Source: an uncultured Anaerolineaceae bacterium (GTDB taxonomy: Bacteria; Chloroflexota; Anaerolineae; Promineifilales; Promineifilaceae). From it: DNA of 18,796 nucleotides. The stretch lies in contig CALBTC010000488.1 in assembly GCA_937967805.1 (NCBI GenBank), positions 1-18,796 on the forward strand, read 5' to 3'. The position numbers and the translations under genes are program-made. Within the stretch, counting starts at the first letter, position 1; every line of letters begins with the position of its first letter. The notes below the pieces were generated by a model, which worked only from the letters and a program-made list of their open reading frames with translations, did no database searches and was not told the origin of the DNA. Below, piece by piece: positions 4,064 to 16,776 of the stretch.

Positions 4064-5218
4064 TTAGGCGCTGCGATACAGCTTTGTCAGCACAAATTCA
4101 TCGTGCCGCAACGCTTCGGCAGCGGTGAGACGGCCGTTGACGCAGCGGGCCATCATCTCCATCGTTTTGTCGGCCGCTTCATCCAGGCTCATTTCCAGCG
4201 TCAACAATCCCGTGATGTCAACGTCAAAATGCTCCGGCATGGTGGAAACGGTCAACGGGTTGGCCGAAATTTTCATCGTAGGGCAGATGGGGTTGCCGAT
4301 GATGTTCCCCTGGCCCGTGGTGAAAAAGTGGAAGACTGAACCGCCGGCCATGCACAGCGTCACCATCTCGGCGGCGGCGCTGGAGCTGTCCATGAAGTGC
4401 AGCCCTGGCCCCTGCGGCATCTCTGCCGGTTTCAGGACGGAAGCTACCTTGTTGCGCCCCATCTTTTCCACGTTGCCCAACGCTTTTTCTTCAATGGTCG
4501 TCAGGCCGCCGCGAATATTGCCCTGGGTCGGTTGGGACCCCAGCAAATCGGCCCCGGTGCCGATGATGAAATCCTGGTAATCTTGAAACGTTTTCATGAA
4601 CTCATCGCGCACGCTTTGGTTCACGCAGGCGTCGGCGATGATGTCTTCCGCGCCGGTCACTTCGCTGGTTTCGCCAAAGATAGCCGTGGCCCCGGCTTCG
4701 ATCATGCGTTCAAACACGCGGCCCACGGTGGGATTAGAGGCCAGGCCCAGCGTGGTGTCTGATTCACCGCATTTGGCGCTGACCCACAGCTCGCCCAGCT
4801 CAATCGGTTCGCGCTGAAGCTCGGTGGCAAACTGGGTAAATTCCATCGCTTTGCGCGATGCCAGTTCAATCGTTTTCAGGTCGCCGTACCGCTCGATGCT
4901 GAAGCTGGCCACCGGCTTGCCGGTTTTGGCGATGCCTTCGGTAACCCATTCAGTCCATTTGGGCTCAATGCCGATGACCACCACGGCAGCGACGTTGGGG
5001 TTGGCCCCGGCGCCGATGAGGGTGTTCATGGTCAGGTCCAGGTCTTCGCCAAACTGCAAACGGCCGTACGGATGAACCAGCGCATACGTGCCGCGAATGA
5101 GGGAAGCCACGCCCGAGGCGGCGGCGTTAGAAATATCGTCAATGGGAATGATCAACACATGATTGCGCACGCCGACGCGTCCATTTTCTCTTCTGTATCC
5201 GGTTAATTTTAGGTCCAT
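4064..5218 (-). CDS. suyB: (2R)-3-sulfolactate sulfo-lyase, large (beta) subunit
   Basis: This UxaA/altronate-dehydratase-type lyase matches the SuyB branch by recall of the family. Near the N-terminus it has GYRRENGRVGVRNH, then DDISNAA, YGRLQFGEDLDL and NPNVAAVVVIGIEP. The middle has KCGESDTTLG and GETSEVTGAE. Further on come GGLTTIEEKALGN, FMDSSSAAAEMVTLC and TGQGNIIGNP, and the end is LYRSA. With SuyA it cleaves sulfolactate to pyruvate and sulfite in the cytoplasm. The start is taken at the ATG that overlaps the suyA stop as TAATG, with AAGGTGG just upstream, giving 384 residues; a GTG nine bases earlier is possible. Plain altronate dehydratase is the alternative, but that enzyme is usually one fused polypeptide and no hexuronate genes are present. 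It contains two ACGGCCGT palindromes. Confidence 0.87.
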   Translation of the reverse strand: MDLKLTGYRRENGRVGVRNHVLIIPIDDISNAAASGVASLIRGTYALVHPYGRLQFGEDLDLTMNTLIGAGANPNVAAVVVIGIEPKWTEWVTEGIAKTGKPVASFSIERYGDLKTIELASRKAMEFTQFATELQREPIELGELWVSAKCGESDTTLGLASNPTVGRVFERMIEAGATAIFGETSEVTGAEDIIADACVNQSVRDEFMKTFQDYQDFIIGTGADLLGSQPTQGNIRGGLTTIEEKALGNVEKMGRNKVASVLKPAEMPQGPGLHFMDSSSAAAEMVTLCMAGGSVFHFFTTGQGNIIGNPICPTMKISANPLTVSTMPEHFDVDITGLLTLEMSLDEAADKTMEMMARCVNGRLTAAEALRHDEFVLTKLYRSA

Positions 5219-5502
5219 TATGCCCACCTTATACTTTTTACATTTTGGGTATGTACATGCGCGCCTTTGGCAATTTCACGCGTGGCCCGGCCGATGGTAC
5301 GGCCGTATTTGATCACCTCGTGCTCGGCCGGCATATGGCGTAGGGCAATTTTGTGCCCCAGCGGAATCGCCTCGATGGCCTGCACAACGGCCACTTCCTT
5401 ACCGGTGAGATCAACGGCTCGCACCCGATCTCCGGCAGCAACATCATGGATAACCACTGCCACGTCATCTACATCGTGGTGTAACAATGCATCGTGTTTC
5501 AT
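5218..5502 (-). CDS. suyA: (2R)-3-sulfolactate sulfo-lyase, small (alpha) subunit
   Basis: This 94-residue SAF-domain protein corresponds to the N-terminal domain of altronate dehydratase, encoded here as a separate gene as in SuyAB. Visible features are HHDVDDVAVVI at the start, then IPLGHKIAL, KYGRTIG and KGAHVHTQN. The small subunit pairs with SuyB to form the lyase that releases sulfite from sulfolactate. Its ATG is preceded by AAGGAGAGGTGA, the best ribosome-binding region among the enzyme genes. The gene starts 28 bp after the aldehyde dehydrogenase stop, and its own TAA overlaps the suyB ATG, so the two subunits are translationally coupled. One ACGGCCGT lies at 5299-5306. Confidence 0.87.
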   Translation of the reverse strand: MKHDALLHHDVDDVAVVIHDVAAGDRVRAVDLTGKEVAVVQAIEAIPLGHKIALRHMPAEHEVIKYGRTIGRATREIAKGAHVHTQNVKSIRWA

Positions 5503-5530
5503 ACGCTATCACCTCTCCTTAAAAATGTTA

Positions 5531-15380: not shown

Positions 15381-15429
15381 TCACGCAAAGTCGCAAAGAC
15401 TGTTTTGCGCACTTGGCGGCTTGGCGTGA
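15381..15429 (-). repeat. imperfect hairpin before the isomerase gene
   Basis: TCACGCAAAGTCGCAAAG (15381-15398) and CTTGGCGGCTTGGCGTGA (15412-15429) pair over 18 nt with three mismatches around a 13-nt loop. It lies in the 158-bp gap between the regulator stop and the isomerase start, ending about 20 nt before the ribosome-binding site. A smaller TGAGC/GCTCA hairpin follows at 15473-15486. It may be an RNA-processing element or a dispersed intergenic repeat. No separate promoter was recognised in this gap. Confidence 0.6.
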
Positions 15430-15516
15430 AAATTTCATTCATGGTGGCTTTGAGGTTATCTCAGCCAAACGTTGAGCTTGCGCTCATCTCGTTTCCTACA
15501 AAATAATGTCTGTCAC

Positions 15517-16776
15517 TCAAACCTGCACTGCCAGATCGCGATCGGCGGCGTAGAAAAGCCCCATTAAGGCTAACGACGCCGCGCCCACAACGCCGGCTCG
15601 CCAGCCAAACTGCGTTGGCTGCAAGCGGACGCGCTCGCCCAGTTGGGCAAAGGCCGTTTTTCGCATCGTTCCCTCTGCGACGGGGATAATCAGATCGCCG
15701 GCCTGGGCAAACATGCCGCCCAGCACAATCATTTCCGGGTTCAGCACGTTGACCAGGTTTGCCAGGGCAATGCCCAGGTAGTAAGCGCGCTCCTCAATCA
15801 TTTGCAGGGTAGGCGTGTCCCCCGCGCGCGCCGCGGCAAATACGGCTTCTACCGGATCGTCTACTGCCTTGTTTAAGTGGCTTGCCAATACGCCATCCGG
15901 ATACGCCTCGGCCAACGGCCAGGCGTCTTGCAGCAGCACCGGCTCGGAGACCAATGTTTCCAGGCAGCCGCGCTGCCCGCAGCGGCACAGCGCCCCGTTG
16001 TGCGGCAAAACGATCGTGTGCCCAATCTCCCCGGCCCCGGCGCCAAAGCCGCGGAACAGCTGGCCATTGATGACAAACCCGGCACCGACACCGATACGGC
16101 CGTAAATAAAAGCCAGCACATCCACCCCACGCCCTAAACCAAAATAGGCTTCGCCCAGGGCCATGGCCCGCACATTGTTGTCGACACACACGGGCAGGCC
16201 CAGCTGATCTTCCAGGTGTTCCCGGATCGGCACGTCTTGCCAGCCCAAACTGGCCGCCCGCAGATTGATGCCTGTTTGATAATTCACCAGACCGGATGCT
16301 CCGACGCCGATACCCAGGATGCGATACGGTTCAATGGCTGACTCAGCCAAAATAGCCTGGATAGTTTGGGTGATGAGCTGCAAAACTTCCTCGGCCGGTT
16401 GGTCAATGGAAAAGTTTACGATTTTGTTCTGTACAATTTCCGCATGGAGGTTGGTGATGGCGACGCGGAACATGCCGATGCCAATATGAACGCCCACGAC
16501 AAAACGGGCATCGGGCACCAGTTGCAGCATCGTCCGGGGCCGGCCGACGCCGCGCCGGGCTTTTCCCGGCGTCGCTTGATCACTCGTTTCGACGATGATG
16601 CCGTGTTCAATCAATTCGGCCGTTAGGTTGGTAATGGTTGTATTGGAAAGCGTGGTTTGTTCGGCTAACTGCACGCGAGAAAGAGAGCCGGCGTGCAAAA
16701 ATGTGAGGAGGACTGCCCGCAAATTATGTTTTTTAACGCGCAAAATATTGCTGCCGGCCAAAGATGATCGATTCAT
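15517..16776 (-). CDS. ROK-family (NagC/XylR-type) transcriptional repressor
   Basis: The 419-residue protein has an N-terminal winged helix-turn-helix (about 17-62, LSRVQLAEQTTLSNTTITNL) and a basic linker RGVGRP. A ROK sugar-binding body follows, with GIGVGASGLV, CVDNNVRAMALGE, GEIGH (His253) and the zinc motif CRCGQRGCLE (264-273). The N-lobe phosphate loop reads GVHIGIG, so the Asp of the DxGxT kinase motif is His, which supports a sensor rather than a sugar kinase. It heads the operon and most likely represses it until the sugar or an intermediate binds. The ATG at 16776 follows a weak GGACGAAG. A perfect sigma70-like promoter lies 70-100 bp upstream. It has one ACGGCCGT site (16096-16103). 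Confidence 0.9.
   Translation of the reverse strand: MNRSSLAGSNILRVKKHNLRAVLLTFLHAGSLSRVQLAEQTTLSNTTITNLTAELIEHGIIVETSDQATPGKARRGVGRPRTMLQLVPDARFVVGVHIGIGMFRVAITNLHAEIVQNKIVNFSIDQPAEEVLQLITQTIQAILAESAIEPYRILGIGVGASGLVNYQTGINLRAASLGWQDVPIREHLEDQLGLPVCVDNNVRAMALGEAYFGLGRGVDVLAFIYGRIGVGAGFVINGQLFRGFGAGAGEIGHTIVLPHNGALCRCGQRGCLETLVSEPVLLQDAWPLAEAYPDGVLASHLNKAVDDPVEAVFAAARAGDTPTLQMIEERAYYLGIALANLVNVLNPEMIVLGGMFAQAGDLIIPVAEGTMRKTAFAQLGERVRLQPTQFGWRAGVVGAASLALMGLFYAADRDLAVQV

What the first reader, a model, noticed from the sequence alone, without database searches (positions are those of the whole stretch)
4064..16776. One operon for sulfoquinovose use all the way to pyruvate and sulfite
Seen: isomerase, small transaldolase, GabD-type aldehyde dehydrogenase, SuyA and SuyB, a GH4 glycosidase, an ABC importer and a ROK regulator on one strand with short gaps. 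Known: transaldolase-type sulfoglycolysis uses isomerase, transaldolase and sulfolactaldehyde dehydrogenase, and SuyAB cleaves sulfolactate to pyruvate and sulfite. Described transaldolase pathways generally excrete a C3 sulfonate for other bacteria to finish. Here both halves appear fused in a single, probably Chloroflexota, operon, so one organism could use all six carbons and release sulfite.
Basis: partly seen in the sequence, partly recalled or inferred. Interest (0 to 1): 0.92.

Follow-up and report, generated by a model that had tools for sequence, protein, structure and literature searches.

The report
Sulfosugar-to-pyruvate operon with nickel racemase
A probable Chloroflexota bacterium carries, in one gene row, what looks like a full kit for turning the plant sulfosugar sulfoquinovose into pyruvate and sulfite, including a new candidate for the step that flips sulfolactate to its other hand: a nickel-cofactor enzyme of the lactate-racemase family.

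Summary
The route (sulfosugar to sulfofructose, sulfolactaldehyde, sulfolactate, then pyruvate plus sulfite) is well supported: the transaldolase's best solved relative is the sulfofructose transaldolase BmSF-TAL, and SuyB falls in the SuyB clade, 62% identical to the gene beside hpsNO in Cupriavidus pinatubonensis. The headline is not new: a 2022 review says Chloroflexi and Thermotogae sulfo-TAL clusters contain SuyAB. New here is the racemase. Sulfo-TAL gives (S)-sulfolactate and SuyAB cuts (R); known systems bridge this with SlcC and ComC. In 396 class genomes this LarA occurs in 41 of 46 with SuyB and 0 of 19 with only UxaA-like homologues; none of 50 SuyB stretches has both LarA and SlcC/ComC within 8 kb. 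I propose a sulfolactate racemase (LarAH5 group, whose first tested member has KM 55 mM for malate). Of 27 genomes with the window's SuyB type 11 also carry dsrA; in one, dsrABC-MK lies about 3 kb behind LarA. Against: 18 of 32 genomes checked have neither LarC nor LarE. No activity is shown.

The parts
15517..16776 (-). ROK-family transcriptional regulator, first gene of the operon
   Evidence: PF00480 5.6e-55; ROK precedes the isomerase in relatives L001, L044, L047 and others
14018..15358 (-). Putative sulfoquinovose/sulfofructose isomerase, SftI/SqvD-like (ORF opens at 15442; likely start 15358)
11318..13933 (-). ABC solute-binding protein, tandem fusion of two SBP domains
   Evidence: PF13416/PF01547, two stretches; halves 88% identical over 389 residues; also double in L001
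10224..11246 (-). ABC permease 1
   Evidence: PF00528
9169..10221 (-). ABC permease 2
   Evidence: PF00528
8488..9150 (-). 6-deoxy-6-sulfofructose transaldolase (SqvA/SftT type)
   Evidence: Best PDB match 8bc3, named BmSF-TAL, 250 bits against 158 for the next group (1vpx); shares FVGWKE where 1vpx reads FVGRMD; VSVEV, SPF and VIK stretches read, taken as transaldolase signature and Schiff-base Lys (partly recalled)
7020..8426 (-). GH4 glycosidase, candidate sulfoquinovosidase in place of GH31/GH188
   Evidence: PF02056, PF11975; best solved relative 3fef LplD, named alpha-galacturonidase, 154 bits, nearly tied with a 6-phospho-beta-glucosidase at 151; in the locus of several relatives
5531..6958 (-). 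Aldehyde dehydrogenase, candidate sulfolactaldehyde dehydrogenase (ORF opens at 7099; likely start 6958)
   Evidence: PF00171, NCBIfam SSADH 534 bits, cut-off 646; both Arg positions proposed to bind sulfonate in RlGabD appear present, which human SSADH also has
5218..5502 (-). SuyA, small subunit of (R)-sulfolactate sulfolyase
   Evidence: SAF domain PF08666; overlaps SuyB by 10 nt; 40% identical to the partner gene in C. pinatubonensis
4064..5227 (-). SuyB, large subunit of (R)-sulfolactate sulfolyase
   Evidence: PF20629/PF04295; 62% identical to the gene near hpsNO in C. pinatubonensis HN-2; inside the SuyB clade, 100/100
2703..3971 (-).
   Evidence: NF052595 548 bits over cut-off 462; catalytic and cofactor residues intact; tied to SuyB in relatives
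1602..2702 (-). APH-fold small-molecule kinase, last gene of the operon, substrate unknown
   Evidence: PF01636; also in the locus in L043, L102, L103; AlphaFold2 model pLDDT 95 resembles many APH-fold kinases weakly

Best explanation
This is an extended transaldolase-type sulfoglycolysis (sulfo-TAL) operon of a probable Chloroflexota bacterium. An ABC importer brings in sulfoquinovosides, the GH4 enzyme frees sulfoquinovose, the isomerase makes sulfofructose, the transaldolase passes three carbons to glyceraldehyde phosphate and leaves (S)-sulfolactaldehyde, the aldehyde dehydrogenase makes (S)-sulfolactate, the LarA homologue with its nickel-pincer cofactor turns it into (R)-sulfolactate, and SuyAB splits that into pyruvate and sulfite. 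Shown here by sequence: gene content, order and conservation; family placement of the transaldolase, SuyB and LarA; linkage of LarA to SuyB. Inferred: every substrate, the racemase role of LarA (about 0.65), the sulfoquinovosidase role of GH4 (about 0.6), and the fate of sulfite.
For: Transaldolase: BmSF-TAL 250 bits against 158 and about 78. SuyB: 40-row clade at 100/100 holding five plasmid genes that I label SuyB from context (Cupriavidus hps cluster; Sinorhizobium, Paracoccus, Methylobacterium and Rhodococcus beside SlcC/ComC-like, TauE or ALDH genes; where annotated, they are called only UxaA family hydrolase); in the plasmid search the first 13 of 40 listed rows are at 59.6-62.0% identity and the other 27 at 37.9% or less (274 of 314 records not listed). 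LarA: in 396 genomes drawn from the class, 25 of 27 with the window's SuyB type and 16 of 19 with a second SuyB type also have this LarA, against 0 of 19 with only UxaA-like homologues; it lies within a few kb of SuyB in 19 of the 27. In 50 SuyB stretches (49 relatives and the window) 32 have LarA within 8 kb, 9 have SlcC and/or ComC, none has both, 9 have neither. Stereochemistry: (S)-sulfolactate is formed, SuyAB takes (R), SlcC/ComC is the described bridge (PMC12421959; PMC9594981; PMC10507020). LarAH5 of Desulfitobacterium hafniense has KM 55 mM for L-malate and its authors doubt malate is its substrate (PMC7583248); that species can use sulfolactate as electron acceptor (PMC12890257). Residues matching Mar2's Q293 and K351 are kept as Q294 and K353.
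Against: No enzyme here has been assayed. Of 32 genomes with LarA beside SuyB only 12 have LarC and 12 LarE over cut-off (14 either, 18 neither), against 11 and 10 of 20 comparison genomes; in the second SuyB group only 2 of 12 have either. Draft genomes and masked stretches may explain part, not surely all. LarA also occurs without SuyB in 13 of the 396 genomes, in G660 (L149) beside the same isomerase and transaldolase, though near a contig end. A characterised LarAH62 is a good malate racemase (KM 0.21 mM, PMC11770544); I did not learn which group it belongs to. One SlcC-bearing stretch (L114, G560) has this LarA about 20 kb away on the same contig. The fetched relative with the most similar upper operon (G001) carries a SuyB only 35% identical. 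The isomerase is below the SftI cut-off and its model also names isomerases in other contexts. The aldehyde dehydrogenase cannot be told from an SSADH by the residues checked. Another review says Chloroflexi reduce sulfolactaldehyde to DHPS (PMC12890257).
Confidence: 0.68

Rival explanations
1. Same pathway to (S)-sulfolactate, but LarA is an ordinary malate racemase that happens to lie in the operon, and racemization is done by dehydrogenases encoded elsewhere or SuyAB tolerates (S).
For: NCBIfam names the group malate racemase; cofactor genes not enriched; LarA occurs without SuyB in 13 of 396 genomes; a characterised LarA homologue, LarAH62, has KM 0.21 mM for malate.
Against: LarA tracks two separate SuyB clades (25 of 27 and 16 of 19 genomes) and not the UxaA-like homologues (0 of 19), and shares none of 50 SuyB stretches with SlcC/ComC within 8 kb. 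Malate has no evident place in the route (inference).
Confidence: 0.2
2. The operon serves another sulfonated sugar (for example sulfofucose) or a sulfoquinovose derivative, with the same C3 end.
For: The isomerase is a divergent AraA/FucI-fold enzyme under the SftI cut-off; the glycosidase is GH4, unlike the described GH31 and GH188 sulfoquinovosidases.
Against: Relatives L044 and L045, with the same isomerase family, and L108 carry a GH31-family enzyme in the locus, the family of the known sulfoquinovosidase YihQ, though GH31 holds other activities too. The sulfofucose route described in PMC12421959 is Entner-Doudoroff-like, not a transaldolase route.
Confidence: 0.12
3. No sulfonate is involved: the genes break down a uronic or aldaric acid, with SuyB acting as a sugar-acid dehydratase.
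For: SuyB is of the galactarate/altronate dehydratase superfamily; the GH4 enzyme's best solved relative is LplD, named alpha-galacturonidase, nearly tied with a 6-phospho-beta-glucosidase.
Against: SuyB placement, transaldolase placement, a TauE-family gene just behind LarA in G523, dsrABC-MK about 3 kb behind LarA in G427, and dsrA in 11 of 27 genomes with this SuyB against 4 of 369 others.
Confidence: 0.04

Closest known systems
Extended sulfo-TAL gene clusters of Chloroflexi and Thermotogae (its reference 21, cited in the review PMC9594981)
   Same: SqvD-family isomerase, SqvA-type transaldolase and SuyAB in one cluster, predicted to use all six carbons.
   Different: In that review's main text racemization is mentioned only for SlcC/ComC and HpsO/HpsP, and LarA not at all. 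Its Figure 5A and supplements were not seen, and reference 21 was not read.
Sulfo-TAL of Bacillus megaterium/aryabhattai
   Same: Transaldolase matches BmSF-TAL along its whole length, including the FVGWKE stretch.
   Different: Bacilli stop at sulfolactate, anaerobic Firmicutes at DHPS (PMC12890257, PMC9594981); the window continues to sulfite.
SlcC/ComC-SuyAB sulfolactate pathway (Chromohalobacter, Paracoccus, Taurinivorans)
   Same: SuyB of the same clade as plasmid SuyB genes with SlcC/ComC-like neighbours.
   Different: (S)-to-(R) conversion by two dehydrogenases there; here one LarA homologue appears to take their place.
LarAH5/Mar1 (Desulfitobacterium hafniense) and LarAH6/Mar2 nickel-pincer malate racemases
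   Same: Window LarA scores over the LarAH5 cut-off and has the group-5 Gln and the Lys thought to bind the second carboxylate in Mar2.
   Different: Proposed substrate is sulfolactate; 'sulfo' has 0 hits in the main text of either LarA-family paper searched.
GH31 (YihQ) and GH188 (SqgA) sulfoquinovosidases
   Same: Place in the pathway gene cluster. A GH188 gene is reported in a cluster of a Chloroflexi bacterium (PMC10755693).
   Different: The window has a GH4 enzyme, an NAD- and Mn-dependent family of another kind.

Membership tests
Sulfo-TAL pathway | Sulfofructose transaldolase (SqvA/SftT) | tested here: met
   250 bits to BmSF-TAL against 158 to the next transaldolase; FVGWKE kept
Sulfo-TAL pathway | SQ isomerase SqvD/SftI | tested here: inconclusive
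   NF048012 is the only NCBIfam match but 297 of 700 bits; type-B-like Chloroflexota isomerases score 266-343, five from other contexts 142-179; AraA/FucI fold
Sulfo-TAL pathway | Sulfolactaldehyde dehydrogenase or reductase | tested here: inconclusive
   SSADH-like ALDH with both proposed sulfonate-binding Arg, which human SSADH also has
Sulfo-TAL pathway | Accessory, not defining: SqvB (PF16161) and a GH31 or GH188 sulfoquinovosidase | tested here: not met
   No PF16161 or GH31 among the 14 window proteins scanned; GH188 was not searched as a family; a GH4 enzyme stands there instead
Sulfo-TAL pathway | Turnover of sulfoquinovose and sulfofructose | not testable with these tools
   Needs enzyme assay
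SuyAB (R)-sulfolactate sulfolyase | Large subunit within the SuyB clade, apart from UxaA/GarD | tested here: met
   100/100 clade with five plasmid genes labelled SuyB from context, incl. the one near hpsNO in C. pinatubonensis; no assayed SuyB sequence was in hand
SuyAB (R)-sulfolactate sulfolyase | Small SAF-domain partner next to it | tested here: met
   PF08666 at 5218-5502, 10-nt overlap
SuyAB (R)-sulfolactate sulfolyase | Release of sulfite from (R)-sulfolactate | not testable with these tools
   Needs enzyme assay
LarAH5 group of nickel-pincer racemases | Model score over curated cut-off | tested here: met
   548 against 462 bits
LarAH5 group of nickel-pincer racemases | Catalytic and cofactor residues (LarA D72, R75, H108, H174, K184, H200, K298) | tested here: met
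   D69, R72, H106, H172, K182, H198, K295 in the window and in all 56 related LarA rows (two more distant LarA rows, one of them badly aligned, not counted)
LarAH5 group of nickel-pincer racemases | Cofactor biosynthesis genes in the same genome | tested here: inconclusive
   No genome is held for the window; relatives: LarC 12 of 32, LarE 12 of 32, neither in 18 of 32
LarAH5 group of nickel-pincer racemases | Racemization of malate or sulfolactate | not testable with these tools
   Needs enzyme assay
DsrAB sulfite respiration in the same organism | dsrAB in the window's genome | not tested
   No genome held; dsrA over cut-off in 11 of 27 genomes with this SuyB type

The most novel reading that the evidence does not exclude
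The LarAH5 group of nickel-pincer enzymes are sulfolactate racemases, a single-enzyme, redox-neutral replacement for the SlcC/ComC dehydrogenase pair, and explain the poor malate affinity of Desulfitobacterium hafniense Mar1. In part of this Chloroflexota lineage the sulfite made this way is respired by DsrAB in the same cell, so that one organism takes sulfoquinovose all the way to sulfide, a task described in the papers I saw for partner cultures.
Probability: 0.5. Interest if true: 0.82.

Novelty: new variant of a known kind. Interest (0 to 1): 0.66.

Why it matters
Sulfoquinovose is among the most abundant organosulfur compounds, and its anaerobic breakdown to sulfide is usually drawn as a hand-over between a sugar fermenter and a sulfite respirer. 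A one-enzyme sulfolactate racemase would be a new reaction for the nickel-pincer superfamily, would settle an open substrate question for LarAH5, and would give a sequence marker for complete sulfoquinovose use. Linkage to dsrAB in Chloroflexota would suggest where some of these lineages get their sulfite.

Tried and rejected
Rejected: SuyB as an altronate/galactarate dehydratase (trees). Transaldolase as a fructose-6-phosphate aldolase (about 78 bits, and Glu/Phe signature). The name of model NF048012 as proof of sulfoquinovose specificity (it also hits isomerases from other contexts). LarC/LarE as supporting evidence (they came out against). Rfam and tRNA scans of the window gave nothing. 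Structure matches for the kinase are spread over many APH-fold enzymes with TM about 0.5 and name no substrate. My first count for the second SuyB group (14 of 14 with LarA) was biased, because I had fetched the LarA-bearing places first; fetching the remaining SuyB-like places corrected it to 16 of 19 by the same search, with one more (G662) showing LarA in the fetched stretch.

Limits: the genomes are mostly drafts and related to one another, so Fisher values measure clustering and are not independent evidence. The genome searches scored at most 4 candidates per genome in the large draws, so misses are possible, as in G662. The type-B loci were found through the isomerase and the LarA loci through SuyB, so the exclusivity table mixes two samples; five of the nine SlcC/ComC rows are near-copies; SuyB hits covering under 75% of the query (such as L056, L122) and the five SuyB2 rows added (one with LarA, four with neither) are not in that table. 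Rows without LarA or SuyB in view may be cut by contig ends. Neighbour calls in the tables are tblastn hits to my query set, some at about 30% identity (GH31, AOR), and Pfam was run on a part of them only. Transaldolase/aldolase signature residues, the R171/R289 mapping by distance from the WNF and Cys motifs, and the LarB reading in G621 are recalled or by eye. Papers: only passages were seen of PMC10755693, PMC10599462, PMC12890257, PMC9594981, PMC11770544, PMC12421959, PMC13372026, PMC10591310, PMC12330013 and PMC10507020; two whole sections plus passages of PMC7583248; the rest were seen in search listings only. Statements that a thing is not in print rest on (40 of 72 listed; 20 of 4,416; 20 of 29; 0 papers; 15 of 579; 15 of 21; 1 paper) in an open-access library without most subscription journals.

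
Full report
What is in the window. Twelve genes lie on the minus strand from 16776 down to 1602: ROK regulator, isomerase, double solute-binding protein, two ABC permeases, small transaldolase, GH4, aldehyde dehydrogenase, SuyA, SuyB, LarA homologue, APH-fold kinase. Family matches are strong. The isomerase and aldehyde dehydrogenase most likely start at 15358 and 6958, where Shine-Dalgarno-like sequence precedes the ATG. The four named relatives are Chloroflexota drafts (L001 Chloroflexi bacterium bin.33, L002 Anaerolineae co234_bin11, L003 Chloroflexota bin116, L004 Anaerolineaceae CSSed11_170R1). 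No genome is held for the window itself.

Transaldolase. Against the PDB the best matches are three sequence variants of BmSF-TAL (245-251 bits); 1vpx (transaldolase) follows at 158 and fructose-6-phosphate aldolase 1 at about 78. Window and BmSF-TAL share FVGWKE where 1vpx reads FVGRMD. By pattern search 16 of the 20 related transaldolases in relatives keep GWKE; in the other four the pattern found nothing.

Isomerase. Only one NCBIfam model matches, SftI (297 of 700 bits). Isomerases of the other Chloroflexota type score about the same (L052 296, L055 292, L054 343, L062 266), and five isomerases in stretches without the pathway's other enzymes score 142-179. The AlphaFold2 model (pLDDT 92) has the arabinose/fucose isomerase fold. 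So the fold and reaction type are clear and the substrate rests on context.

SuyAB. In the plasmid collection the first 13 of 40 listed rows encode a homologue at 59.6-62.0% identity and the other 27 at 37.9% or less (274 further records not listed). The best is a gene near hpsN and hpsO in Cupriavidus pinatubonensis HN-2, annotated only as UxaA family hydrolase; the SuyAB of that species' strain JMP134 is described as an (R)-sulfolactate sulfolyase (PMC12890257, passage). In trees of 67 and 88 rows the window falls in a 40-row clade with 100/100 support that contains five plasmid genes I label SuyB from context, and in a 25-row subclade (100/99) of Chloroflexota rows and the window. A second Chloroflexota clade ('SuyB2', 20 rows) is separate; G001, whose isomerase, transaldolase and GH4 are 75-84% identical to the window's, carries that type.

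What was already known. A review states that sulfo-TAL clusters in Thermotogae and Chloroflexi contain SuyAB, suggesting complete use of the sugar's carbon (PMC9594981, passage). Two Chloroflexi with a sulfolactaldehyde dehydrogenase in a sulfofructose-transaldolase cluster are counted in PMC10599462 (passage). Another review says instead that Chloroflexi reduce sulfolactaldehyde to DHPS (PMC12890257). A tandem sulfosugar-to-sulfite route is described for sulfofucose in Paracoccus (PMC12421959, passages).

The racemase. Sulfoglycolysis yields (S)-sulfolactate, SuyAB cleaves (R)-sulfolactate, and the described bridge is the SlcC/ComC dehydrogenase pair. Chloroflexota loci with the other type of isomerase and transaldolase ('type B', L051-L060) carry such genes: of 9 type-B stretches with a SuyB hit, 6 have both a 2-hydroxyacid dehydrogenase and an Ldh_2 gene, 2 the first only, and 1 (L056, cut by the contig end) neither (Pfam run on L057 only). 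The window and its relatives carry LarA instead. Over 50 SuyB stretches (49 relatives and the window): LarA only 32, SlcC and/or ComC only 9, both 0, neither 9, within 8 kb; one of the nine, L114, has this LarA about 20 kb away. In 396 genomes drawn from the class, this LarA (E up to 1e-90) is in 54; SuyB of the window's type is in 27, of which 25 have LarA (19 within a few kb); the two without, G516 and G670, group with type-B SuyB at modest support. SuyB2 is in 19, of which 16 have LarA. The 19 genomes that have only UxaA-like homologues have none. In the tree, LarA lies next to 13 of 20 SuyB2 rows and 0 of 27 UxaA-like rows.

LarA chemistry. The window protein passes the LarAH5 cut-off (548 against 462 bits) and not the LarAH6, LarA or LarAH10 cut-offs. 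The catalytic and cofactor-binding residues are present in it and in all 56 related rows; K353 is kept in 55 of 56 (one gap), and Gln173, the group-5 mark, in 30 of 32 SuyB-adjacent rows and 16 of 24 others. Mar2's matching Lys351 is thought to bind the second carboxylate of malate (PMC7583248; alignment). Sulfolactate is malate with a sulfonate in place of that carboxylate. LarAH5/Mar1 from Desulfitobacterium hafniense has KM 55 mM for L-malate and its authors suggest another native substrate; the species can use sulfolactate as electron acceptor (PMC12890257). No paper in the library holds two of 'sulfolactate racemase', 'lactate racemase', 'sulfolactate'. On the other side, LarAH62 of Sporomusa termitida, whose group I did not learn, has KM 0.21 mM for D-malate (PMC11770544). 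My proposal that LarAH5 is a sulfolactate racemase is inference.

Weak point. LarA needs a cofactor made by LarB, LarC and LarE. Among 32 genomes with LarA beside SuyB, LarC is found in 12 and LarE in 12 (14 with either: 12 of 20 with the window's SuyB type, 2 of 12 with SuyB2), against 11 and 10 of 20 comparison genomes. G621, almost all of it on one 5.35-Mb contig, has LarC and a partly masked frame that by eye reads like LarB, but no LarE over cut-off. Incomplete drafts, masked stretches or cofactor uptake may explain this; it is not explained here.

Fate of sulfite. DsrA (over cut-off) is in 15 of 396 genomes, 11 of them among the 27 with the window's SuyB type, none of the 19 with SuyB2 and none of the 19 with only UxaA-like homologues. 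In G427 the same strand reads, with other genes between the first ones, transaldolase, GH31, SuyA, SuyB, LarA, two unknown frames, a YeiH-family transporter, dsrA, dsrB, dsrC, a dsrM-like gene (below its cut-off) and dsrK. In the other ten the dsrA hit lies on another contig or, in G621, about 4 Mb away. AprA is over cut-off in 0 of 16 genomes checked, with a full-length match below the cut-off only in G501 and G665, which points to sulfite rather than sulfate reduction. In G523 a TauE-family gene follows LarA. DsrAB is known in Chloroflexota (PMC10591310, passages); I found no paper tying it to sulfoquinovose use there. Whether the window's own genome has dsrAB is unknown.

Variable parts. 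The glycosidase is GH4 in the window and in 13 of the other 49 stretches, and a GH31 hit, in part at low identity, in others; one stretch, L112, has both. The oxidation step is an ALDH in the window; in 11 of the 35 stretches with the window's SuyB type an aldehyde:ferredoxin oxidoreductase hit appears, L105 having both (Pfam run on L047 only). The kinase is in three further loci, and its substrate is open.

Verdict. The fusion itself is not new. The LarA racemase and the dsrAB association are the parts worth testing.

Noticed in passing
window 11318-13933: Solute-binding protein is a tandem duplication fused into one 871-aa chain, halves 88% identical; the relative L001 has the same, L044 has a single copy. 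No ATP-binding subunit for the importer was found among the 14 window proteins scanned.
   Followed up: partly
L108 119-5322 (G427): dsrA, dsrB, dsrC, a dsrM-like gene and dsrK stand on the same strand about 3 kb behind the sulfo-TAL-SuyAB-LarA genes.
   Followed up: yes
L043 4208-5688 (G001): A relative with 75-84% identical isomerase, transaldolase and GH4 carries a SuyA/SuyB pair of another clade (SuyB 35% identity) in the same operon: replacement by a distant homologue.
   Followed up: yes
L044, L047, L100, L101, L102, L104-L107, L112, L113, L118: An aldehyde:ferredoxin oxidoreductase hit stands in the locus, without an ALDH hit in all but L105.
   Followed up: partly
L149, L150, L152: LarA beside the same transaldolase (and isomerase in L149) without SuyAB in view; L149 has a threonine-synthase-like PLP enzyme between LarA and the oxidoreductase.
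   Followed up: partly
window 1602-2702: APH-fold kinase at the operon end; 260 homologues found, most of the 120 listed without a functional name; substrate unknown.
   Followed up: partly
L051-L061: The other Chloroflexota sulfo-TAL loci use a transaldolase with FVGRLD; that of L052 resembles 1wx0 (207 bits) more than BmSF-TAL (98 bits).
   Followed up: partly
L102 9614-10270 (G523): TauE-family gene directly behind LarA, a possible sulfite exporter.
   Followed up: no
L045 9229-11055 (G003): GlmS-like SIS/glutamine amidotransferase gene inserted between SuyB and LarA.
   Followed up: no
L102 6859-8295, L149 5702-6988, L150 5484-6812: GFO/IDH/MocA-type oxidoreductases in the locus; the GH188 sulfoquinovosidases are NAD-dependent too, so these deserve a check.
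   Followed up: no
window 49-1323 and 17281-18324, plus strand: Flanking HEAT-repeat protein and O-methyltransferase, apparently unrelated to the operon.
   Followed up: no
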